From Halorubrum ezzemoulense DSM 17463 (lineage in GTDB: Archaea; Halobacteriota; Halobacteria; Halobacteriales; Haloferacaceae), in the NCBI RefSeq assembly GCF_002114285.1, contig NZ_NEDJ01000012.1:1-60008 (forward strand): a stretch of DNA of 60,008 nt, read 5' to 3'. Below the pieces are notes generated by a model. It saw nothing but the letters and a program-made list of their open reading frames with translations. It was not told the DNA's origin and searched no databases. Within the stretch, counting starts at the first letter, position 1. Each line of letters opens with the position of its first letter. The position numbers and the translations under genes were made by a program. Below are positions 39,559 to 54,069 of the stretch, piece after piece.

Positions 39559-40362
39559 CTAGAACGCGTCCGAATCGAGCACTCGGTGGGGGACATTCTG
39601 ATCTCGGAGCTTAGAGGTGTGGCGCGGGATCTCGTCGGTCACCGCCACCAGAAGCACGTCGAGGCCGAGCATCCCCGCCTCGGCGACGCCCTCTGCGGTT
39701 CCGAACCGAATGTCCGGAGCGACGTCGCTCTGAGAGACGAGCGCGTACGCCTCCGTTCCGGCGACCGCGACGAGTCCCTCCTCCGGGACGCGCGTCGAGA
39801 CGACGTCCGAATTCGGCCGGTCAGCGTCGGTGACGGTCGGGACAGGCAGCACCGAGACGGTTCCGGCGTCGTAGTCGACGACGCCCTCGAAGTCGGCGAC
39901 GCCGACGGCCTCGCCTTTTTTGCCGCTCGTGACGGTGACTGCGGTCGCGGTCCCGCCGGCGGGGTTGGCGTGTAAGATGCCGTCGCGCATCACGATTCCG
40001 ACCTCGATCCCTTCGTCCACGTCGTCTAATGCGATCGCGGCGTCGACTTCGACGCTCCCGAGCACATCGGAATTTACCCGTTCGAGATACGTCTCCAGAT
40101 CGTCCGTCCGAGAGATGAGCCAGTCGACGCCCTCCTTCGTCACCTCGTACCGACCGCGACCCCTCTTTTCGACGTACCCCGACTCGACGAGGTCGCGGAC
40201 GTAGTCGCTGACCGCCTGAGAGGTCACACCGATCGTGTCCGCGATCTCGTTCTGGCTCACGGCCGGCTGGCGGGCCGCGATCTCAACGAGTATCTGATAC
40301 CGGGTCGCGCTCCGTTTGTTTTCGAGGACGTCTGGTGAGTTCTCGCCGTCGGCGTCGGCCAT
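39559..40362 (-). CDS. Winged-helix regulator, DUF7839-like, in the cob cluster
   Basis: ATG 40362 gives 267 residues; an in-frame extension to 40740 is rejected because it runs antisense through cbiT. The N-terminal winged helix-turn-helix (about 15-85) reads RYQILVEIAARQPAVSQNEI, ADTIGVTSQAVSDYVRDLVE, SGYVEKRGRGRYEVTKEG. The rest (about 95-267) is an acidic effector-like domain with DDVDEGIEVGIVMRDGILHA, GVVDYDAGTVSVLPVPTV and LVAVAGTEAYALVSQSDVAP. It is divergent from cbiT with a 151-bp intergenic region, and its tail faces the chlID operon. It is a likely local regulator of cobalamin or cobalt genes; this is inferred from position. Confidence 0.8.
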   Translation of the reverse strand: MADADGENSPDVLENKRSATRYQILVEIAARQPAVSQNEIADTIGVTSQAVSDYVRDLVESGYVEKRGRGRYEVTKEGVDWLISRTDDLETYLERVNSDVLGSVEVDAAIALDDVDEGIEVGIVMRDGILHANPAGGTATAVTVTSGKKGEAVGVADFEGVVDYDAGTVSVLPVPTVTDADRPNSDVVSTRVPEEGLVAVAGTEAYALVSQSDVAPDIRFGTAEGVAEAGMLGLDVLLVAVTDEIPRHTSKLRDQNVPHRVLDSDAF

Positions 40363-40513
40363 TACCGGACATTTTCCTGCCACAAACAAAGTCTTGTTGT
40401 CTGTTTCACAGCGCATTTGCTCTGATCGAGCCGCTCGAGGGTGCCTTTGTAAAGCCAACTTTAGTAAAAACAACCAAAATTGTTTTGTGGCGTTGTTCAC
40501 TTGTGTAGCGTGA
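40363..40513. promoter_or_regulatory. Divergent promoter region, regulator / cbiT operon
   Basis: An AT-rich spacer with pseudo-palindromic runs: ACAAACAAAGTCTTGTTGT (40382-40400) and ACCAAAATTGTTTTGTGG (40473-40490). The latter resembles ACCAACAATATTTGT upstream of cbiX1 (about 28368-28382). Both are near where an archaeal TATA/BRE would lie. Candidate operators only. Confidence 0.4.
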
Positions 40514-41101
40514 ATGCAGGCGACAAACCTTCCGAACGACGCGAAAGCGGGACCGACCAAGCCGGAGGTCCGGGCGGTGTTGGCGCGGAAGCTCGCGCTC
40601 GGTCCCGACGACCACTTCGTCGAGGTCGGCTCCTGTACCGGCGCTGTAACGATCGAAGCCGCCCGCCGAGCGGGGCGGGTAACGGCGCTCGAACGGAAAT
40701 CGGAACGGGTTGAAGCGACCCGAGCGAACCTCGACGCCAACGAGTACGGCGCCGACGTGCGGCTCGTGAACGCCGAGGCGCCGGAGAGACTTCCCGACGA
40801 CGGTGACGTGGTTTTCCTCGGGGGATCACGAAACTACGAGCGAGTTCTCGACGACGCCGTCGCCGCCGGCTACGACCGGATCGTGATGAACGTGTCTCGG
40901 CTCGAAGTCGCAGGTGAAGCGGCCCGAGCCTTCCGCGACCGCGACCTCCTCGATGAAGTGTTGTGCCTCCAGATGGCGACCGGCTACGATCTGGCAGGCG
41001 CGACGAGTTTCGACGCCGACAACCCTGTGTACATGCTCGTCGGCGAGCCGGGGTCCAGCGAAGAGCCAGGACCTAGTGAAAAGCCGGGTGATAGCGAATG
41101 A
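40514..41101 (+). CDS. cbiT: Cobalt-precorrin-6B C15-methyltransferase (decarboxylating)
   Basis: A 195-residue class I SAM methyltransferase. GPTKPEVRAVLARKLAL is the typical CbiT N-terminus, the SAM-binding motif is FVEVGSCTGAVTIEAAR (about 36-52), followed by VTALERKSERVEATRANLDA and DVVFLGGSRNYERVLDDAVA. It methylates C15 and removes the C12 acetate carboxyl. The C-terminal 20 residues (Glu/Pro/Ser repeats of the EPG/KPG type) are an unusual low-complexity tail. It is the first gene of the long rightward cbi operon; the next start (cbiL) is 29 bp downstream. Confidence 0.92.
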   Translation: MQATNLPNDAKAGPTKPEVRAVLARKLALGPDDHFVEVGSCTGAVTIEAARRAGRVTALERKSERVEATRANLDANEYGADVRLVNAEAPERLPDDGDVVFLGGSRNYERVLDDAVAAGYDRIVMNVSRLEVAGEAARAFRDRDLLDEVLCLQMATGYDLAGATSFDADNPVYMLVGEPGSSEEPGPSEKPGDSE

Positions 41102-41129: not shown

Positions 41130-41873
41130 ATGACTCTGTACGGCGTGGGGCTCGGCCCCGGCGATCCCGACCTGATCTCCGTTCGCGGACGGGAGATCCT
41201 CGACGGGGTCGACGTGGTGTATTCTCCGGGTCGACTCTCGCGGGCGGTCGCGACCGAGCACGTCCCGGAGAGCCGGATCGGGGACCTCGATTTCCCGATG
41301 ACGAGCGACGAAGAGCGGCTGCGCGAGGCGTGGAAGGAGGCCGCGGCCGAAATCGCCCCAGAAGCGCGCGCCGGCGACGCCGCGTTCGTCACGCTCGGCG
41401 ACCCGAACGTGTATTCGACGTTCGGGCACCTCAGACGGACTCTCGACGCATTCCATCCCGACATCGACGTGGAGGTCGTGCCCGGGATCAGCGCGATGAC
41501 GGCGTTCGCGACGGCACTCAACGTCGAGGTCGAAGCCGGCGCCGGACTCGCGCTCCGCGAGGCCGCCGGCGGACACGCGCCGACCGGGCCCGACAGGATG
41601 ATCCTATTCAAAGTGACCAACGCCCCTGAGACGGCTCGCCAGCTCGATCGGGCGGGCTACGACGTGCGGTTCGGACGGCGGCTGTTCATGGACGCGGGCG
41701 AAACGGTCATCACCGACGACGCCGAGGCGGTGGCGGACCGCGACTACTACACGCTCGCGTACGCCAAACGCCGCGGGCTGGAAACGTCGCGGGCGACCGA
41801 CGAGTTCGCGGCCGACGTGGACACGAACGGTCGCGTCTCCGCGACCACCGACGTGGAGGTCGGCGATGACTGA
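41130..41873 (+). CDS. cbiL: Cobalt-factor II C20-methyltransferase
   Basis: ATG 41130 (MTLYGVGLGPGDPDLISVRG) gives 247 residues. The open frame extends upstream through cbiT, but this start fits the family N-terminus exactly. The tetrapyrrole-methylase motifs are VGLGPGDPDLI, VVYSPGRLSRAVATEHVPES, AFVTLGDPNVYSTFGHL and VEVVPGISAMTAFATALN. CbiL methylates C20 of cobalt-factor II, committing it to corrin synthesis. The stop overlaps the cbiF start by eight bases. Confidence 0.92.
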   Translation: MTLYGVGLGPGDPDLISVRGREILDGVDVVYSPGRLSRAVATEHVPESRIGDLDFPMTSDEERLREAWKEAAAEIAPEARAGDAAFVTLGDPNVYSTFGHLRRTLDAFHPDIDVEVVPGISAMTAFATALNVEVEAGAGLALREAAGGHAPTGPDRMILFKVTNAPETARQLDRAGYDVRFGRRLFMDAGETVITDDAEAVADRDYYTLAYAKRRGLETSRATDEFAADVDTNGRVSATTDVEVGDD

Positions 41874-42798
41874 CGGTCCGGTCGATTCGCAGGCGGCCAT
41901 AGACGGCGTCGGCGACCGGACGGCGGGCGAACTCGATCCCCGGGTCCACGAGTACACCCCCGGCGAAGATCAAGAGGGGATTCCGTTCATCGGTGCCGGC
42001 CCAGGCGACCCCGGGCTCCTCACCGTGCGCGGCAAGGAGCTCGTCGACGAGGCTGACCTCGTCGTCCACGCCGGGTCGTTAGTCTCCAGCGCGCTCTTGG
42101 AGGAACACTGCGCCGACGCGGAGTTGGTGAACTCCGTAGGCAAAGACCTCGAAGAGCTCATTCCGCTGATGCGGGACGCCCACGAGAGCGGTCGTACCGT
42201 CGTTAGACTCCACAGCGGCGATCCAGCGGTGTACGGCGCCGCAATCGAGCAGATCGACGCGCTCGAAAGCGAGGGCGTCCCGGCGTATATCGTCCCCGGC
42301 GTCACCTCGTCGTTCGCGGCGGCGGCGACGCTGCGCACCCAACTCACGCTGAACGGCGTCGCGAACCACGTTGCGTTCACGCGTCCACGAGGGAAGACAC
42401 TTGACGCCGAGGACGACCACGTCGCCGAATTCGTCGAGATGGGCGACGTGACGACTTGTATCTACCTCGGTACCCACGCAGTGAGTGATACGATGGACCG
42501 CCTGCTCGATCGCGACGGCGTCGACCCGGACACGCCGGTCGCGGTCGTCTATCACGCCTCGTGGGACGATGAGGACGTGATCACCGGATCGATCGCCGAC
42601 ATCGGCGAGAAGGTGGAGGCGGCGGGCTACCGCGCGTCCGCGATGGTCCTCATCGGCGAGGCTGCGACGGGTGAGGGGTACGAGCGGTCGTTCCTCTACG
42701 GCGATTGGGCGAACGGCGGAGCAGCCGACGCGGGGAGCGACGGATCGAATAGCGCCGGAGGCGCCGCGGAGACGACCGAAACAGAGGCAGACGACTAA
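41866..42798 (+). CDS. cbiF: Cobalt-precorrin-4 C11-methyltransferase
   Basis: A 310-residue methylase with an acidic N-terminal extension of about 35 residues, then IPFIGAGPGDPGLLTVRGKE, ADLVVHAGSLVSSALLEEHC, VRLHSGDPAVYGAAIEQIDA and YIVPGVTSSFAAAATLRTQL. These are the CbiF/CobM hallmarks. The C-terminus is a Gly/Ser/Glu-rich tail of about 35 residues typical of halophiles. It transfers the methyl to C11. Its stop shares one base with the cbiG ATG. Confidence 0.94.
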   Translation: MTDGPVDSQAAIDGVGDRTAGELDPRVHEYTPGEDQEGIPFIGAGPGDPGLLTVRGKELVDEADLVVHAGSLVSSALLEEHCADAELVNSVGKDLEELIPLMRDAHESGRTVVRLHSGDPAVYGAAIEQIDALESEGVPAYIVPGVTSSFAAAATLRTQLTLNGVANHVAFTRPRGKTLDAEDDHVAEFVEMGDVTTCIYLGTHAVSDTMDRLLDRDGVDPDTPVAVVYHASWDDEDVITGSIADIGEKVEAAGYRASAMVLIGEAATGEGYERSFLYGDWANGGAADAGSDGSNSAGGAAETTETEADD

Positions 42799-43802
42799 TG
42801 AGCACCGACAGCGACGACGGAACGAACGCGAGTAGCACCGACGCGACCGACGACTCCGGCGGCGGGCACTGTTCGACGGCGGATTCGGACGGCGAAGTGG
42901 CAGAAGAGATCGCGGTCATCAGCTTTGAGCGGAAGCTCGATACCGCCGAGGAAATCGTCGAGGAGATCGGCGACCGCTACGAGTCGATCGACGTGATCGA
43001 GTACCACGGCGACGTGTTCGCCGAGCATTGGGGCGAGTACGACTGCTTCGTCGGACTGATGGCCTCCGGGATCGCCATGCGGAAGACCGCGCCGTTGCTC
43101 GACGACAAGTGGGACGACCCCGCGATCGTCGTGATCGACGAGGAGCTTACTTGGGCGATCCCGATCACCGGCGGTCACCACGGCGCCAATCAAGTGGCAG
43201 ATGACCTCGCGACGCTCGGCGCTGTGCCGGCGATGACCACCGCCTCAGAAGCAGCGGACAAACAGGGCGTCGAGAAGCAAGCGAAGGCGCTGTCCGCACA
43301 CGTCGTCAACGGTGACTCCACGGTCGCGACGAACCTAGCCGTCCTCGACGACGAACTCGGCCCGGTCGGACGGCTCGACGGGCCGCGGGCAGTGCTGGTC
43401 GACGACGACGTGACGGTCCTCAAACGCAACCTCGACGATGGGGTCGTCCTCGGTACGGGCTCGGTTTCCGGTGCGGATAAAGGCCGATTCCTCGATGCCT
43501 GGGACCGAGCGCTCTCCGAGGTCGATCGCGACTGGGCCGATGTCGAGTTCGTCGCCACTGGGACGCGAAAGGCCGATGAGGAAGGCCTTCTCGCCGCGGC
43601 CGCGACGCGTGACGTCGGAGTCGTCGCGTTCGACAAGGAGACCCTGCTCGAATTCGAGGGACCGACGCCGTCGAAGGCGAAAGAGCTCATCGGCTGGCCG
43701 GGCGTCGCCGAGGCGAGCGCCATCGCCGGCGGCGCCGACCACGAACTCGTTACGGAGAAGACCAGCTACGAGAACGAAGTGACCGTGGCGGTGGGGCGAT
43801 GA
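42798..43802 (+). CDS. cbiG: Cobalt-precorrin-5A hydrolase
   Basis: A 334-residue CbiG. The first 40 residues are acidic low complexity containing one CSTADSDG stretch. The central region has DCFVGLMASGIAMRKTAPLL and TWAIPITGGHHGANQVADDL (about 95-135), diagnostic for CbiG. The C-terminal CobE/GbiG domain has VLGTGSVSGADKGRFLDAWD, FVATGTRKADEEGLLAAAAT and WPGVAEASAIAGGAD. It opens the ring-A lactone and releases acetaldehyde during anaerobic ring contraction. It overlaps cbiH1 by four bases. Confidence 0.94.
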   Translation: MSTDSDDGTNASSTDATDDSGGGHCSTADSDGEVAEEIAVISFERKLDTAEEIVEEIGDRYESIDVIEYHGDVFAEHWGEYDCFVGLMASGIAMRKTAPLLDDKWDDPAIVVIDEELTWAIPITGGHHGANQVADDLATLGAVPAMTTASEAADKQGVEKQAKALSAHVVNGDSTVATNLAVLDDELGPVGRLDGPRAVLVDDDVTVLKRNLDDGVVLGTGSVSGADKGRFLDAWDRALSEVDRDWADVEFVATGTRKADEEGLLAAAATRDVGVVAFDKETLLEFEGPTPSKAKELIGWPGVAEASAIAGGADHELVTEKTSYENEVTVAVGR

Positions 43803-44752
43803 CCGGTAACGGCTCGTCTCCCGGCGGCGCGGACGAGGCGCCGGACGGCATGGGAACGCTGTACGTCGTCGGTATCGGTCCGGGACTCCCGCACGCGATG
43901 ACCCAGCGGGCCCGCGACGTGATACGCCACGCCGACTGCGTCATCGCCTCGAACCTCTACCAAGAATTCCTCCGGCGGGACGGCACCATTCCGCCCGAGT
44001 CGCGGACGGAGGATGCCGCCGCCACGGACGGCGGTGCCGCGGTCGGCTCGGTCGACGACAGTACCGACCACGCCGGCTGGACGGTCGGAAACGTCGGCAC
44101 CCATCCCGACGGCGAGACCGTCGAGATCGTTCGGTCCTCGATGGGCCAGCAGATCGAACTCGCCCGGGAGGCGTTCGAGCGCGTCCGAGACGGACAAGAC
44201 GTGGCGCACGTCTCCGGGGGCGATCCCAACGTGTACGGGAAGTCTGATCTCGTTTATTTGATGGCCGACGAGGACGACGCCGACGACGTCCCAATCGAGA
44301 TCGTGCCCGGCGTGACGGCCGCGCTCGGCGGTGCCGCGATGGTCGGCGCGCCGCTCTCGAACGACTTCTGTACGATCTCGCTGTCGGACAAGTGGCGCGG
44401 TTGGGAGGAAATCGCAGAGAAGCTTCGCGCTGCGGCGGTGTCGGACTTTTCGATCGTCCTCTACAACTGCTGGCGTGACTACGAGCGCGCGATCGAGGTG
44501 CTCCGGGAACACCGCACCGACGACGCCCTGGTCGCGATCGTCAACGACGCCGGGCGCGGCGAGGCCGGCCGTAACTTGGACGACGAGACGTACACGCTGA
44601 CGACACTGGGCGAGGCGACCGACCACGACGACGAGGTCGGCGGCATGGGCACATCCCTGATCGTCGGCACCCACGAGACGGAAATCTGGGAGAACGACTA
44701 CGACCAGTTCCTCGTCACCCCGCGTGGCGGGCGAGATGTCGACGACTTCTGA
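43799..44752 (+). CDS. cbiH: Precorrin-3B / cobalt-factor III C17-methyltransferase, paralogue 1
   Basis: A 317-residue methylase with LYVVGIGPGLPHAMTQRARD, DCVIASNLYQEFLRRDG, VAHVSGGDPNVYGKSDLVYL, IVPGVTAALGGAAMVGAPLS, NDFCTISLSDKWRGWEEIAE and VLYNCWRDYERAIEVLREH. The SLSD...W(E)xIxxKLRAAA block is that of CbiH/CobJ enzymes, which methylate C17 and contract the ring. An insertion of about 30 residues (about 63-95, TEDAAATDGGAAVGSVDDS) is unusual. A second paralogue follows after two bases. Which of the two carries the C17 activity cannot be told from sequence. Confidence 0.88.
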   Translation: MTGNGSSPGGADEAPDGMGTLYVVGIGPGLPHAMTQRARDVIRHADCVIASNLYQEFLRRDGTIPPESRTEDAAATDGGAAVGSVDDSTDHAGWTVGNVGTHPDGETVEIVRSSMGQQIELAREAFERVRDGQDVAHVSGGDPNVYGKSDLVYLMADEDDADDVPIEIVPGVTAALGGAAMVGAPLSNDFCTISLSDKWRGWEEIAEKLRAAAVSDFSIVLYNCWRDYERAIEVLREHRTDDALVAIVNDAGRGEAGRNLDDETYTLTTLGEATDHDDEVGGMGTSLIVGTHETEIWENDYDQFLVTPRGGRDVDDF

Positions 44753-44754
44753 CA

Positions 44755-45780
44755 ATGAGTGACACCACCTGCGGACCGACGGACGAATCGAGCTCGAACT
44801 GCGGCGGCAGCGATCCCGAGACGGCGATCGACGGTGGCCGCGCAGCGAACGACGCGGCCACCGACGGGGGAGCGGCGACGGAAAACACTAGCGCGTCGTC
44901 GCCGTCGTGCGGCGCGAGCGACTCCAACGGCACCTCCTCGTGTGGTAGTACGAAATCTTCGGCGACGGACGAGAAGGTCGGATCGACCGCTGACGACTTC
45001 TACGCCAACCCGGGACGGCTGTTCGCCGTCGGACTCGGCCCCGGGCAGCCGGAGGGAATGACGCAGCGTGCTAAGGCGGCACTACTGGAGGCGGAACACA
45101 TCGTCGGATACACAACGTATATCGACCTGATTCCGGACGACGTCACCGAGGCCGCCGACGAGCTGTACGACACGCCGATGTGCGGCGAAGTCTCTCGGAC
45201 CGAAGAAGCGGTCGACCGCGCGCTCGCGGGCAACGACGTCGCAATCGTCGGCTCCGGCGATCCGAACGTGTACGCGCTCGGCGGACTCGCCTTAGAAATC
45301 ATCGAGTCGAAGGGTGCGACGGCATCGGCGCTCGACTTCGAAGTCGTCCCCGGCGTCCCGGCCGCGCAGTCGTGTGCCGCTCGCGTCGGCGCGCCGCTCG
45401 TCAACGACTCGGTGTCGATCTCGCTGTCGGACCACCTCACGCCGATGGCGGACATCGAGTCGCGACTCCACGCGGTCGCGGCAGAGGGGTTCACGATCGC
45501 GATATACAACCCGTGGAGCCGGAAGCGACGCGAGAACTTCGAGACGGCCTGCGAGATCCTCTCGGAACACCGGCCGGCCGACACGCCGGTGGGTGTCGTC
45601 CACGGCGCCGGGCGCGACGACGAGGCCGTCGAAATCGTCGAACTCGGCGAACTGAAGTCGCTCGGCGAGACCGACCTCATCGACATGACGACCACGCTGC
45701 TCGTCGGCAACGAGGAGACGTACGTCTGGGACGGCCGGATGATCACCCCGCGCGGCTACGAGAGCAAATATGACTACTGA
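44755..45780 (+). CDS. cbiH: Precorrin-3B / cobalt-factor III C17-methyltransferase, paralogue 2, Cys-rich N-terminus
   Basis: A 341-residue methylase. The first 80 residues are a low-complexity Ser/Gly/Asp tail with four Cys (CGP, NCGG, SCGA, SCGS), not seen in standard CbiH. The core then has LFAVGLGPGQPEGMTQRAKA, HIVGYTTYIDLIPDDVTEAA, VAIVGSGDPNVYALGGLALE, VVPGVPAAQSCAARVGAPLV, NDSVSISLSDHLTPMADIES and AIYNPWSRKRRENFETACEI. The YNPxSxxR block is the classic CbiH/CobJ signature and fits the family better than paralogue 1. The Cys tail might bind Fe-S or metal, notable because Fe-S-containing CbiH60-type enzymes are known; this is inference. It overlaps the next ferredoxin by 11 bases. Confidence 0.9.
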   Translation: MSDTTCGPTDESSSNCGGSDPETAIDGGRAANDAATDGGAATENTSASSPSCGASDSNGTSSCGSTKSSATDEKVGSTADDFYANPGRLFAVGLGPGQPEGMTQRAKAALLEAEHIVGYTTYIDLIPDDVTEAADELYDTPMCGEVSRTEEAVDRALAGNDVAIVGSGDPNVYALGGLALEIIESKGATASALDFEVVPGVPAAQSCAARVGAPLVNDSVSISLSDHLTPMADIESRLHAVAAEGFTIAIYNPWSRKRRENFETACEILSEHRPADTPVGVVHGAGRDDEAVEIVELGELKSLGETDLIDMTTTLLVGNEETYVWDGRMITPRGYESKYDY

Positions 45781-46051
45781 GCACGTCGACACCGGGACGA
45801 CGTACCGCGTTTCCGTCGATCTGAACGCCTGCGACGGCGTCTTCGCCTGCCTCGTCCGCGACGATCGGTTCGTCGAGGCCGACGGGGGGCTCGTAGGCTT
45901 CGATCCCGCGGACGCCGTGACCTCGGTCGAACGTACCTCCGACAAGGCTGCCGCGACGTTCTGTGACGAGCGTATCGACGAGGCACAGGCAGCCGCGACG
46001 GCCTGTCCGCTGGACGCGATCAGCGTCGAGGAACGCGAGGGCGAGATATGA
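45770..46051 (+). CDS. Small [3Fe-4S]/[4Fe-4S] ferredoxin in cbi operon
   Basis: A 93-residue acidic protein. YRVSVDLNACDGVFACLVRD has a C-x5-C and ATACPLDAISVEER has the closing CP motif. The pattern (C-x5-C ... CP) is that of single-cluster [3Fe-4S] ferredoxins; an additional Cys occurs in TFCDER. It sits tightly between cbiH paralogue 2 and the LAGLIDADG-like gene (four-base overlap), so it is surely made with the corrin enzymes. It may serve as electron donor to a methylase or to the missing precorrin-6 reductase step. Confidence 0.85.
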   Translation: MTTEHVDTGTTYRVSVDLNACDGVFACLVRDDRFVEADGGLVGFDPADAVTSVERTSDKAAATFCDERIDEAQAAATACPLDAISVEEREGEI

Positions 46052-46761
46052 GCGCCGTCGAGACGACGCCGGACGACATGCTCGCCCGTCACCCGGAGAC
46101 TGCCTATTTCTGGGGCCACGTCGCCGGCGGCGGACGAGTGACCGATCAGGGGATCGAGATCGAAGTCAGCGATGAGGACGCCGCACGCCGCCTGTCCGCG
46201 ATCTCTGGTGGCGGAACCGTCGATCATCGGATCGCTGAGCGCGACTTCGCACATGACACGGCAGTCACCCGGCAGGCCGACGAATACACGGTACAGATCA
46301 TCGACCCGACGCTGGCCGCGAATGCCGCTGCGGCGCTCGGATTGCCGGTGGGATCGGATCCCGGCGGGTATCGGTTCGACGCCCTCCGCGACCACCGTCG
46401 AGAGCTGCTTCGCGGGTTGTTGGAGGCGTGCGGCGTCGTCTGCTTCCGCGAGTCGAGCGCCTCGGTCGGCATCTCGTTCGTCCACGACGACGCCCGGCTG
46501 TTGGAGCGGATCCGGACATCGCTCGACGTGGCGGGGTTCGACTCCGAAGAACCGCAACCGTCGTCGTCGGGCGGATACTGGTTCGGCGTCGCTGACGGCG
46601 ACACGGCCGCGTTCGCTGAATGGGTCTACGAGGGCGCAGGCGACAGCGGGCTGTTCGCGACAAGCCGTCGTCAAAAGGCGCTCCGAAGCGTCGAGCGGGC
46701 CACAGGCCTCGATGTGGGAAGCCTTATCGAACCGATCGACACGGACGGAGGAGACTCATGA
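46048..46761 (+). CDS. Cobalamin-operon protein with two degenerate LAGLIDADG-like repeats
   Basis: A 237-residue protein of unknown function. Two repeats resemble the LAGLIDADG fold: AYFWGHVAGGGRV (about 19-31) followed by a beta-rich segment, and ELLRGLLEACGVVCF (about 118-132) followed by VGISFVHDDARLLERIRTSL and GGYWFGVADGDTAAFAEWVY. The acidic residue that normally ends each motif is Gly in the first and Cys in the second, so it should not be an active homing endonuclease. LAGLIDADG folds without catalysis are known in DNA-binding proteins such as WhiA. It overlaps the ferredoxin and cbiX2 genes by four bases each, so it belongs to the operon. It could be a regulator or a novel pathway protein; the fold call rests on motif reading alone. 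Confidence 0.6.
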   Translation: MSAVETTPDDMLARHPETAYFWGHVAGGGRVTDQGIEIEVSDEDAARRLSAISGGGTVDHRIAERDFAHDTAVTRQADEYTVQIIDPTLAANAAAALGLPVGSDPGGYRFDALRDHRRELLRGLLEACGVVCFRESSASVGISFVHDDARLLERIRTSLDVAGFDSEEPQPSSSGGYWFGVADGDTAAFAEWVYEGAGDSGLFATSRRQKALRSVERATGLDVGSLIEPIDTDGGDS

Positions 46762-47975
46762 GCCGGACGGCAGACGCCGTCGGAATCGGCGACGAAGAGA
46801 CAGCACTGCTCGTCGGCCACGGCTCTCGTCGGGACAAGTCGAACGAGGCAGTACGCGAACTCGCGGCCGGTCTCGAGGATCGTCTCGGCGTCTCGACCGA
46901 CGCTGCGTTCCTCGAACTCGCGGAACCGTCGATCCCCGACGCCATCGGCACGCTTGCGCACAGTTCGTCGCGCATAACGATGGTGCCGCTGTCGCTGTTT
47001 GCGGCCAGTCACGTCAAAAACGACCTCCCGCTCGCCATGAAGCGAGCGCGAAGCGAACACCCGGGCGTTACCTTCCATGCGGGCGCGCACCTCGGCATTC
47101 ATCCCGCGATACTCGACCTCCTCGACGATCGGTCGCGGGACGTGGAGGCACAGTTGGGGGTCGACCGCGACGACGACGACGTCGCCGTCGTGGTCTGTGC
47201 TCGCGGCTCCTCAGACCCGGACTCAAACGCCGACGTACACAAGCTCGCCAGATTGCTGTACGAGGGTCGCTCGTTTGATCGGGTGGAAGCCGGGTTCATC
47301 GGTGTCACCGAACCGCTCCTCGACGAGGTGCTCCACGACGTCGCAAAGACCCGACCAGATGTAATCGTCGTGCTGCCGTACATGCTCGGCGACGGCGTCC
47401 TGACCGGTCGGATCCGCGAGGGGGCAGCTGAGTTCGACGCAGAGTACCCGTACGTCGACGCCGCGGCCGGCGACCCGCTTGGAACGGACACCCGTCTGCT
47501 AGACGTTCTTTCGGACCGGTGGCAAGAGGCGCGGACCGGCTCGGTCGACATGTCGTGTGACACGTGTAAGTACAAAGTAGAGCTTGATGGGTACGAGGAA
47601 GACGAAGGAGGAGCGCGTGCGATGCTCCGCGCACTAACTCACCAGCAGGCACACGAGGATCGCGACGACGTCGCCGACGAACCGCACGCTCACGACGCGC
47701 CTGAGACCCACCTCGCCGTCTGTACGAACCAGACGTGCGCGGCGGACGGTTCGCCCGCCGTTCTGGAAAAACTCCGTCAGGCCGCGCGAGACGCCGACGC
47801 AGACGTTCACGTCACGCGATCGTCGTGTTTCGATCAGTGCGGCGACGGCCCGATCGTCGCGCAGTATCCCGACGGCGTATGGTACGGGACCTGCGACGAT
47901 GAGGACGCCGATCGAATCGTCTCCGCCGTCGAGCGGGACCGAATCGTTAGCGACCTCGTTCACCAGACAATATGA
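46758..47975 (+). CDS. cbiX: Sirohydrochlorin cobaltochelatase CbiX with C-terminal ferredoxin domain
   Basis: ATG 46758 (MSRTADAVGIGDEETALLVG) overlaps the previous stop by four bases and gives 405 residues. The first chelatase half (about 10-130) has LLVGHGSRRDKSNEAV and MVPLSLFAASHVKNDLPLAM, both with the metal-binding His. The second half (about 135-265) has VVVCARGSSDPDSNADVHKL and VVLPYMLGDGVLTGRIRE. A short CDTCKY segment and a linker lead to a thioredoxin-like [2Fe-2S] domain (about 310-405) with VCTNQTCAADGS and SSCFDQCGDGPIVAQYPDGV. It inserts Co2+ into sirohydrochlorin at the start of the anaerobic branch. CbiX proteins with Fe-S centres are known; the full ferredoxin fusion is a haloarchaeal form. 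Confidence 0.92.
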   Translation: MSRTADAVGIGDEETALLVGHGSRRDKSNEAVRELAAGLEDRLGVSTDAAFLELAEPSIPDAIGTLAHSSSRITMVPLSLFAASHVKNDLPLAMKRARSEHPGVTFHAGAHLGIHPAILDLLDDRSRDVEAQLGVDRDDDDVAVVVCARGSSDPDSNADVHKLARLLYEGRSFDRVEAGFIGVTEPLLDEVLHDVAKTRPDVIVVLPYMLGDGVLTGRIREGAAEFDAEYPYVDAAAGDPLGTDTRLLDVLSDRWQEARTGSVDMSCDTCKYKVELDGYEEDEGGARAMLRALTHQQAHEDRDDVADEPHAHDAPETHLAVCTNQTCAADGSPAVLEKLRQAARDADADVHVTRSSCFDQCGDGPIVAQYPDGVWYGTCDDEDADRIVSAVERDRIVSDLVHQTI

Positions 47976-47999: not shown

Positions 48000-48377
48000 A
48001 TGAGTTGTGACGAAATCGAAGCCCTGCGGCTCGGGCTTATGAACACCCTCGGAAACTCGGACGACGCGGTTCGACGGCACGCAGAGCAGGAAATCGGTGA
48101 TAAACTCGACGGAGACACACCGATCGCCGCCCTCTCGGCAGCCGAGTCCCTAACGGAACTCCAACGACATCTTGACGCCGCACTCGTCGACTTAGAGGAA
48201 ACAGTCGCAGCCCTCGACGCGGACGACCCGGAATACGCGTACACTCGAGGACGCCTCGTGGCCGTCCGGGACGCCGAGCGATCGTTGGCTCGACTCGCCG
48301 ACTCGGGCGAATCGCTCCTCAACGATCTCGGGGATTCCCATCACACGCTTCACGAGGTTTTCCCCACCGAGGGGTGA
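48000..48377 (+). CDS. DUF3209-family protein, last gene of cbi operon
   Basis: A 125-residue acidic, largely helical protein: MSCDEIEALRLGLMNTLGNS, HAEQEIGDKLDGDTPIAALS, LTELQRHLDAALVDLEETVA and GRLVAVRDAERSLARLADSG. I recognise it as the DUF3209 family found in haloarchaeal cobalamin clusters; no function is known. It begins 24 bp after the cbiX stop. ATG 48000 is used. No catalytic motif is visible. Confidence 0.8.
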   Translation: MSCDEIEALRLGLMNTLGNSDDAVRRHAEQEIGDKLDGDTPIAALSAAESLTELQRHLDAALVDLEETVAALDADDPEYAYTRGRLVAVRDAERSLARLADSGESLLNDLGDSHHTLHEVFPTEG

Positions 48378-48604: not shown

Positions 48605-49292
48605 GTGTTCAGATAAGGATTGAAAAGTGAGGCGGTGCGTCTTCAGAGTGTCTATGCCCGAAAACGACCGCCTCAACGGCTGTTTAGACGAGATCAAGTT
48701 AGATTTTGTGGAGCGAGAGGCAACACCGCGGCTGTTGATGAAGCTCAGTATTCAGCTTCATTCAGCAGGATTATCGTTTTCAAATACTGTTTCGTTTCCT
48801 GGGGTATTCGGTGTTGGACGAGTGCGCTCCACCGTTCACAACTGGGTTCACAAAGCCGATCTACAGCCGGAATCTGGTCGGAGCCCGAATCACATTGCGG
48901 TTGATGAGACTGTGATTCGGCTTGACTATGAACAATATTGGCTGTACGCTGCTGTCGATCCGGAAACGAACGATCTGCTTCATACACAGCTTGAGCCGAC
49001 AACAAATAACGCTCTCGCAGATCGGTTTTTCACTGATCTCTGTGACAAACACGACGTGGATAACGCAACCGTTCTCATAGATGGATCAGCTTCACTCCAG
49101 AAAGCCTGTCGCAAACACGACCTCGATTTCAGATACGAGCGACATGGAAATCGGAACAGCGCCGAACGTGTCTTTCGTGAGGTAAAACGCAGAACTGCCA
49201 GTTCTCAAACTATTTTAGAAACGCCAAAGCAGAAACTGCTGACGAGTGGTTCAGATCATTCGCTTTCGCATGGAACCAGCTTATCTGAACAC
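48605..49292 (+). mobile_element. IS6-family element, copy 2 (688 bp)
   Basis: Perfect 13-bp terminal inverted repeats, GTGTTCAGATAAG (48605-48617) and CTTATCTGAACAC (49280-49292). The transposase inside is nearly intact. No target duplication is visible. The element lies between the cobalamin cluster and the pst operon. Confidence 0.9.
48654..49288 (+). pseudogene. IS6-family transposase, one-base deletion near C-terminus
   Basis: From ATG 48654: MPENDRLNGCLDEIKLDFVE, RSTVHNWVHKADLQPESG, IAVDETVIRLDYEQYWLYAA with the first catalytic Asp, DKHDVDNATVLIDGSASLQK with the second, and GNRNSAERVFREVKRRT with the catalytic Glu. After KRRTAS the frame shifts at about 49202. In the next frame the expected ending FSNYFRNAKAETADEWFRSF, AFAWNQLI is intact to TGA 49286. 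All three DDE residues precede the shift, so the altered protein (stop at 49299) might retain some activity. Confidence 0.9.
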
Positions 49293-49580
49293 TACGCCTG
49301 AAAGAACGCAAATTTTAAATATTCTGGACCATTTGAAGAGACAATCAGATAATTATCAACCCAATACTTATTATTCTGATCCTCCGTTCACCAGACTCTA
49401 TCTGCGAATCAATTTGATCTAGCAATCGAAAGTTCGTATCTTGATGCTCTATGATTTGAGAATCTCCGTTCACTTCCTCAGGATCAATATCTGCCTGAAT
49501 TGTTCTTTAAGTCCGTCTGTCAACTACTTCCGCCCCCTCAAATACGGGTCTAGAGATAGACTCTATTTTTACTACCTTGT
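49293..49580. other. AT-rich intergenic region
   Basis: The IS6 copy and the 3-prime end of pstB are separated by 288 AT-rich bases. No gene, tRNA or clear terminator is recognised. The phoU gene that often follows pstB is absent. Confidence 0.5.
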
Positions 49581-53385: not shown

Positions 53386-54069
53386 GTGTTAATTTTGACG
53401 TGAATTGTGGTAGACGGCGAGGGCTTCGAGCCAGTTTTGAGCTGTCTCTCACGCGACATTGCTAAAACTGTTCGCAAACTAAGATGTTCGTCGTTTTATT
53501 TCTCAAAAGACACGTTCGATGGCATTCCAACTTCCATGCCGAATGACTTAAAATCGATAGCCGTCTTCAGCGAGGATTGAGCCGAGATAGTCTGCGTCAT
53601 CGACGAGAAATTCCACGTTATCGAGCTGATAGCGCCGGTGTAGCTCGGTGAGAAACTATCGCGTCGTCTGTTTATTTGTGGTTGGAAAGAGGCTCACGGG
53701 GAGGATCCCGTTCGTCTGTGGATCAACCGCGCCGTACAGCCAGAACTGCTGGCCGTGGAGGCGGATCATCTTCTCGTCAGCCGCGAGTTGATTCTCGGAG
53801 ACGGTTGAGATCGGCTGTAGATTGGCTTTATGAACCCAGTTATGAACCGCAACGTAGCTCCGATCGATCCCAAACAGTTCAAGATGTTTACTTGCCTCAC
53901 GAAGTGACATACCGACCAAATGACAGCGGAGCCCTAGTTCAATCGCCCAGCGAGGCGTTCGACCTCGCTCCACAAACGGCAAGTCGATCCACGTGATACG
54001 TTCGCTGAGGCGGCCGAATTCTGGCATAGCCACTCAGAAATTGTCCGCCTCATCCTCTAACTTAACGCG
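53386..54069 (-). mobile_element. IS6-family element, copy 3 (about 684 bp, decayed)
   Basis: The ends GTGTTAATTTTGAC (53386 onward) and TAACTTAACGCG (to 54069) are decayed forms of the repeats seen at 15518-16458. The enclosed transposase has lost its reading capacity through several stop codons. Downstream it abuts an SDR gene remnant. Confidence 0.8.
53389..54027 (-). pseudogene. IS6-family transposase with five in-frame stop codons
   Basis: From ATG 54027: MPEFGRLSERITWIDLPFVE, RGRTPRWAIELGLRCHLVGM, SYVAVHNWVHKANLQPIS, QQFWLYGAVDPQTNGILPVS. After TTR the same frame continues to the natural end (YHNSRQN) without a frameshift but with stops TAG, TAA, TGA, TAG and TGA. By comparison with relatives these replace Gln, Gln, Arg, Ser and Arg. 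Four of the five are single C-to-T changes (CAG, CAA, CGA, CGA); the Ser one is C-to-A from TCG. All lie in the second half. Confidence 0.85.

What the first reader, a model, noticed from the sequence alone, without database searches (positions are those of the whole stretch)
46048..46761. LAGLIDADG-like protein without catalytic acids inside the cobalamin operon
Two repeats (FWGHVAGGGRV and LLRGLLEACGVVCF) look like LAGLIDADG helices in which the acidic catalytic residue is Gly and Cys. The gene is translationally coupled on both sides to corrin genes. WhiA shows that such folds can become transcription factors. A domesticated LAGLIDADG protein serving B12 synthesis or its regulation would be new, as far as I know.
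Basis: inference. Interest (0 to 1): 0.7.

Follow-up and report, generated by a model that had tools for sequence, protein, structure and literature searches.

The report
Domesticated homing-endonuclease protein in B12 operon
Salt-loving archaea that make vitamin B12 carry, inside the B12 operon, a protein built on the fold of a selfish DNA-cutting enzyme; it has lost its cutting residues and seems to have become a fixed helper gene, kept in the oxygen-respiring species tested and missing from species without an oxygen-respiration enzyme.

Summary
The 237-aa protein at 46048-46761 folds as a two-domain LAGLIDADG protein (I-DmoI Z 16, WhiA Z 14.7), and haloarchaeal intein endonucleases match it by sequence profile. 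The second catalytic acid is Cys in 81 of 85 relatives. The first is Gly here but Asp in 52 of 85. The gene is not mobile: it sits between a ferredoxin gene and cbiX in nearly every cluster seen, and 53 of 58 haloarchaeal genomes with cbiG have it (one of 88 without). Its Haloferax orthologue, HVO_B0055 by gene order, is published as 'function unassigned' and suggested as a pathway-gap (CbiD/CbiJ) enzyme. That is unlikely, because genomes with the same pathway lack it and CbiD/CbiJ too. A regulator of its own operon is also not favoured: a strikingly conserved operator before cbiT persists where the gene is missing. Three of the genomes lacking it also lack the ferredoxin, DUF3209, the Fe-S domain of CbiX, and any haem-copper oxidase. 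I therefore favour an accessory, non-nuclease role in a redox/cobalt-insertion module that lets the 'anaerobic' B12 route run in air. The module association is well supported; the biochemical mechanism is inferred.

The parts
46048..46761 (+). LAG gene (orthologue of HVO_B0055 by gene order): 237-aa two-domain LAGLIDADG-fold protein without catalytic acids
46108..46134 (+). LAGLIDADG motif 1, residues 21-29 (FWGHVAGGG); Gly28 (46129-46131) at the catalytic-acid position, Asp in 52 of 85 relatives
46408..46434 (+). LAGLIDADG motif 2, residues 121-129 (LRGLLEACG); Cys128 (46429-46431) at the catalytic-acid position, Cys in 81 of 85
46441..46443 (+). Cys132 codon, invariant in 85 of 85, first strand of domain 2, on the cleft-facing side by the hydrophobic pattern
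46252..46254 (+). His69 codon, invariant in 85 of 85, hairpin between strands 3 and 4 of domain 1
45770..46051 (+). ferredoxin-like gene (Fer4_15; HVO_B0056 by gene order), overlaps the LAG gene by ATGA
46758..47975 (+). cbiX (HVO_B0054 by gene order): class II cobaltochelatase with C-terminal thioredoxin-like [2Fe-2S] domain; overlaps the LAG gene by ATGA
48000..48377 (+). DUF3209 gene (HVO_B0053 by gene order)
40514..41101 (+). cbiT, first gene of the cluster
41130..41873 (+). cbiL
41866..42798 (+). cbiF
42798..43802 (+). cbiG
43799..44752 (+). cbiH1
44755..45780 (+). cbiH2
40470..40486 (+). conserved operator-like element ACAACCAAAATTGTTTT, just downstream of a TATA-like stretch, 44 nt before the cbiT ATG

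Best explanation
Shown: a LAGLIDADG protein was domesticated in haloarchaea. It has lost the two-acid DNA-cutting site and is now a fixed, conserved part of the cobalt-early ('anaerobic') B12 cluster, co-occurring with a ferredoxin, a CbiX cobaltochelatase carrying a [2Fe-2S] domain, and DUF3209. Inferred: these form an accessory redox/cobalt-handling module that lets the cobalt-early pathway work in oxygen-respiring cells. The LAGLIDADG protein would act without cutting DNA, using its former DNA cleft to bind a partner or ligand. That cleft has Arg/Gln/Thr plus His69 in domain 1, and invariant small residues with Cys132, a basic residue at 134, Trp178 and Cys128 at the old active site in domain 2. 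Most likely the bound thing is the CbiX/ferredoxin complex or the cobalt-tetrapyrrole it makes, protecting or handing on an oxygen-sensitive low-valent cobalt intermediate.
For: Fold and family. Catalytic-acid loss and invariant Cys132, His69, Ser143, near-invariant Arg65. Fixed position fdx-LAG-cbiX in all 57 loci of the first search. Co-occurrence with CbiG 53/1/5/87 (Fisher p 1e-32) and with DUF3209 54/0/1/91 (p 1e-39). Purifying selection, median dN/dS 0.19. Three genomes lacking it (G008, G060, G397) also lack fdx, DUF3209 and the CbiX [2Fe-2S] domain in an otherwise intact cluster, and lack COX1, which all 11 other genomes tested have. The Fe-S CbiX plus DUF3209 pair recurs in Leptospira and Thermus B12 clusters, both aerobes (general knowledge). 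Halobacterium makes B12 aerobically with the 'anaerobic' branch (PMC3403918). In G294 a second CbiX gene stands in its place. In G134 the gene lies between two CDF metal-transporter genes.
Against: The oxygen correlation rests on 14 genomes and two independent lineages without oxidase; Fisher p 0.018 among the 12 with CbiG, uncorrected for ancestry. G294 has an oxidase and the rest of the module but no LAG, so the protein can be dispensed with in an aerobe. Bacteria with the CbiX/DUF3209 pair have no LAG protein annotated in the cluster. In G134 the gene is not next to cbiX. No ligand or partner was shown, and no LAGLIDADG protein is known to me that binds a small molecule or metal chelate.
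Confidence: 0.42

Rival explanations
1. It is a DNA-binding (or RNA-binding) regulator of the cobalamin operon, working like WhiA: the LAGLIDADG saddle binds the operator near the cbiT start and represses or activates the operon in response to cobalt, corrinoid or redox state.
For: The fold binds DNA in nearly all characterised members (general knowledge). Domain 1's cleft side carries conserved Arg39, Arg61, Arg65, Arg75, Thr37, Thr81 and Gln83. There is a highly conserved operator before cbiT. In-operon genes are often autoregulators. WhiA (Z 14.7) is among the best structural matches.
Against: The operator persists in all LAG-less clusters (G008, G060, G294, G397). The G134 gene lies outside the operator-bearing cluster and no such site was found in its locus. 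There is no HTH domain. Domain 2's cleft side is small and uncharged apart from position 134. The neighbours it co-varies with are Fe-S/chelatase parts.
Confidence: 0.25
2. It fills one of the two haloarchaeal pathway gaps (CbiD methyltransferase or CbiJ reductase), as PMC8305020 suggests for the four unassigned cluster genes including HVO_B0055.
For: CbiD and CbiJ are absent from all 146 order genomes searched, and the gene is a conserved unassigned cluster member.
Against: G008, G060, G397 and G294 have the pathway genes but no LAG gene and no CbiD or CbiJ. The LAGLIDADG fold has no SAM- or NAD(P)H-binding precedent known to me.
Confidence: 0.06
3. It is an active or recently inserted homing endonuclease that happens to sit in the operon.
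For: LAGLIDADG fold closest to archaeal intron-encoded enzymes I-DmoI and I-Tsp061I; haloarchaea carry many LAGLIDADG_3 domains, most of the listed matches lying in long open frames.
Against: Second acid replaced by Cys in 81 of 85; purifying selection; constant position and divergence in step with neighbours. No relatives were found in viral contigs. Not within an intron or intein.
Confidence: 0.02
4. It is a purely structural scaffold, or a folding/assembly factor for the Fe-S ferredoxin and CbiX, without binding metal, tetrapyrrole or nucleic acid.
For: Translational coupling on both sides and tight co-variation with DUF3209 and Fe-S CbiX.
Against: Invariant polar residues line the cleft rather than the outer faces, as judged from the strand pattern; no interaction data.
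Confidence: 0.15

Closest known systems
I-DmoI and I-Tsp061I (archaeal intron-encoded LAGLIDADG homing endonucleases)
   Same: Same monomeric two-domain fold over nearly the whole length (Z 16.0, 2.8 A over 169 residues; Z 15.9, 3.1 A over 182).
   Different: Gly and Cys replace the two catalytic acids here; not mobile, not in an intron; 15% identity.
WhiA (DUF199), domesticated LAGLIDADG transcription factor of Gram-positive bacteria
   Same: Domesticated two-domain LAGLIDADG (Z 14.7, 3.5 A over 181).
   Different: No C-terminal HTH domain here; lies in a biosynthetic operon; archaeal; no shown DNA role.
HVO_B0055 of Haloferax volcanii
   Same: The orthologue by gene order in the major cobalamin cluster; listed as function unassigned (PMC8305020).
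   Different: Same gene family, so no difference in kind; that paper's main text never mentions LAGLIDADG and suggests a pathway-gap enzyme.
HO endonuclease of yeast
   Same: A domesticated member of a LAGLIDADG homing family (PMC7282813).
   Different: HO still cuts DNA; this protein lacks the acids.
Bacterial CbiX (Fe-S form) plus DUF3209 pair in Leptospira and Thermus B12 clusters
   Same: Same neighbours: CbiX with the 2Fe-2S domain, then DUF3209.
   Different: No LAGLIDADG gene annotated in those clusters.

Membership tests
LAGLIDADG fold superfamily | Two-fold repeated alpha-beta-beta-alpha-beta-beta-alpha fold with saddle-shaped sheet | tested here: met
   AlphaFold2 model and fold matches
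LAGLIDADG fold superfamily | Two LAGLIDADG-like helical motifs in register with family profiles | tested here: met
   PF14528 hits in 35 of 49 members; hhalign E 1.7e-7 to haloarchaeal intein domains
Active LAGLIDADG homing endonuclease | Acidic residue (Asp/Glu) at the end of both motifs | tested here: not met
   Gly28 and Cys128 here; position 128 is never acidic in 85 sequences
Active LAGLIDADG homing endonuclease | Mobile, sporadic, in intron/intein or with empty target sites | tested here: not met
   Constant place in the cob cluster, co-occurrence with CbiG, none in viral contigs
WhiA family (DUF199) | C-terminal HTH domain after the LAGLIDADG part | tested here: not met
   No WhiA or HTH_WhiA Pfam hit; model shows only the LAGLIDADG domains plus a C-terminal helix
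WhiA family (DUF199) | DNA-binding transcription factor | not testable with these tools
   Only indirect evidence: operator kept without the gene
CbiD or CbiJ (missing steps of cobalt-early pathway) | Similarity to PF01888 or PF02571 | tested here: not met
   No such hit for any of 49 members at E up to 10
CbiD or CbiJ (missing steps of cobalt-early pathway) | Present wherever the pathway runs without CbiD/CbiJ | tested here: not met
   G008, G060, G294 and G397 have CbiG clusters without LAG, CbiD or CbiJ

The most novel reading that the evidence does not exclude
A LAGLIDADG protein has been turned from a DNA-cutting enzyme into a cobalt-tetrapyrrole (or cobalt) binding protein: the former DNA cleft, with invariant Cys132 and His69 and conserved Trp178 and Arg residues, holds the product of CbiX and shields or reduces it so that the oxygen-sensitive cobalt-early B12 route works in aerobes. 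It would be the first LAGLIDADG fold with a small-molecule role, as far as I know, and part of a general 'aerobic kit' for the anaerobic B12 pathway.
Probability: 0.2. Interest if true: 0.85.

Novelty: new variant of a known kind. Interest (0 to 1): 0.6.

Why it matters
How haloarchaea run the so-called anaerobic B12 pathway in air, and what the four unassigned genes of their cobalamin cluster do, are open questions in the literature (PMC8305020, PMC3403918). This work gives one of the four a fold, an origin (a domesticated selfish endonuclease) and a testable context (a redox/cobalt module missing from genomes without an oxidase), and argues against the published guess that it fills the CbiD/CbiJ gap. 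Domesticated LAGLIDADG proteins outside DNA and RNA transactions would be new, as far as I know.

Tried and rejected
Profile search of PDB sequences with the orthologue alignment gave only chance hits; only the structural comparison and Pfam/hhalign reached the family. PHROGs gave weak scattered hits, one labelled endonuclease. No relatives in IMG/VR. The absence of the gene in G453 is a contig end (its contig stops inside cbiG), and so is the absence of CbiG in G448, whose contig starts at LAG. A weak hit in G463 has a stop inside and no recognisable motif and was rejected. The idea that LAG reads the cbiT operator was tested by looking at LAG-less genomes and not favoured. The pathway-gap idea was tested by the same genomes and judged unlikely.

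Full report
Observation. The gene at 46048-46761 (+) encodes 237 aa and overlaps its neighbours by ATGA on both sides: the ferredoxin-like gene ends at 46051 and cbiX starts at 46758. It is the only copy in its genome. The closest relatives are mostly Halorubrum, 79-92% identical, so the window is most likely Halorubrum.

Fold. The window protein alone hits nothing in Pfam or NCBIfam, but 35 of 49 orthologues hit LAGLIDADG_3 (best 3.6e-5). AlphaFold2 on the orthologue alignment gave pLDDT 86.5 and pTM 0.84, with two alpha-beta-beta-alpha-beta-beta-alpha halves. Foldseek against PDB put I-Tsp061I first (E 4.9e-7), with WhiA and I-DmoI close behind. VIA-align gives Z 16.0 with I-DmoI (2.8 A over 169), 15.9 with I-Tsp061I (3.1 A over 182) and 14.7 with WhiA (3.5 A over 181). 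A profile of haloarchaeal LAGLIDADG domains collected here aligns to it with probability 94 and E 1.7e-7, both motifs in register.

Catalytic residues. In 85 distinct relatives the motif-1 acid position (28) is D 52, S 12, G 11, A 6, N 4; the motif-2 position (128) is C 81, A 3, S 1. Tyr20, Gly23, His69, Arg122, Glu126, Gly129, Cys132, Ser143 and Arg207 are invariant. The two-acid nuclease site is thus gone family-wide, but Asp remains in motif 1 of most members. Cleft-side strand residues are Arg/Thr/Gln-rich in domain 1, and small plus Cys132, Lys/Arg134 and Trp178 in domain 2 (sides assigned by hydrophobic alternation, an inference).

Context. In all 57 loci from the first search the order is (cbiT-L-F-G-H1-)H2-fdx-LAG-cbiX(-DUF3209), as far as the contig reaches. 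RefSeq calls the orthologues 'cobalamin biosynthesis protein' or hypothetical. The Haloferax cluster in PMC8305020 lists HVO_B0052, B0053, B0055 and B0056 as unassigned; by gene order B0055 is this gene, and that paper is the only one in the library that names it.

Distribution. Of 146 haloarchaeal-order genomes, 54 have LAG, 58 have CbiG and 53 have both (Fisher 1e-32). In the phylum-wide draw, hits occur only in this order. DUF3209 is present in 55: all 54 LAG genomes plus G294. CbiD and CbiJ are in none. dN/dS among Halorubrum-type copies is 0.19, against 0.08-0.29 for neighbours.

Exceptions that inform. G008, G060 (one genus) and G397 have intact cbiT-L-F-G-H1-H2-cbiX with chlID and cobN, but lack fdx, LAG, DUF3209 and the [2Fe-2S] domain of CbiX, whose tail is His-rich instead. 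These three lack a haem-copper oxidase (PF00115), while the other 11 genomes tested have one. G294 has an oxidase, fdx, DUF3209 and two CbiX genes but no LAG. G134 has a diverged 198-aa LAG elsewhere, between two CDF transporter genes and next to a rhodanese gene, with cbiX-DUF3209 on a third contig. G453 is a contig end. So the pathway chemistry does not need LAG, which argues against the gap-filling idea; and LAG belongs with the Fe-S/DUF3209 set. That set's CbiX-DUF3209 core also occurs in Leptospira and Thermus clusters, which are aerobes (general knowledge). The C-terminal Fe-S and His-rich region of CbiX-L from Bacillus megaterium is known to be unneeded for cobalt insertion, purpose unclear (PMC7689651).

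Operator. Upstream of cbiT all 50 clusters examined carry TTt...cTAatACAAcCAaAATTGTTTTa at 41-44 nt before ATG. The core pattern occurs in 57 of 58 CbiG genomes and 0 of 88 others, with one chance hit in the reversed control. It also precedes cbiH1 where the cluster is split (L095, L097, L098). It is kept in LAG-less genomes with 1-2 mismatches, so LAG is not needed for its maintenance. A divergent MarR-type/DUF7839 gene next to cbiT in 26 loci is a candidate reader of it.

Mechanism. Shown: domesticated, nuclease-site-less LAGLIDADG protein, conserved, part of a Fe-S/CbiX/DUF3209 set. Inferred: the set supports cobalt insertion or early corrin steps in air, with LAG as a binding protein using its cleft. 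The oxygen link rests on two oxidase-free lineages and 14 genomes (p 0.018 among 12 CbiG genomes, uncorrected). A DNA-binding regulator remains a serious rival.

Novelty. Domesticated LAGLIDADG proteins are known (WhiA, HO). One fixed in a metabolic operon with a family-wide Cys in the old active site was not found in the literature searched. I class it as a new variant of a known kind.

Noticed in passing
window 40470-40486 (+); also L095 9777, L097 10431, L098 12739: Highly conserved operator-like element ACAAnCnnAATTGTTTT at fixed distance (41-44 nt) before cbiT in 50 of 50 clusters; core found in 57 of 58 CbiG genomes and none of 88 others.
   Followed up: partly
window 39559-40362 (-): Divergent MarR-type HTH plus DUF7839 gene next to cbiT in 26 loci, a candidate regulator of the cob operon.
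   Followed up: partly
L089, L090, L092 versus window 46758-47975: CbiX in oxidase-free genomes has a His-rich tail where the others have a [2Fe-2S] thioredoxin-like domain.
   Followed up: partly
L138 (Leptospira), L139 (Thermus): Fe-S CbiX followed by DUF3209 in bacterial B12 clusters; DUF3209 has no paper in the library.
   Followed up: partly
L091 11702-13887: Tandem cbiX genes (one with His tail, one with Fe-S domain) in G294, the first standing where LAG usually lies.
   Followed up: partly
L093 8444-11453: Diverged LAG protein in G134 lies in a same-strand run with two CDF cation-efflux genes and a rhodanese gene.
   Followed up: partly
window 48627-49301 and 53656-54033: Transposase-like fragments follow DUF3209, and a phosphate-transport gene set lies beyond; the PQQ-like gene, chlID and cobN seen after DUF3209 in other clusters are not next to it here.
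   Followed up: no
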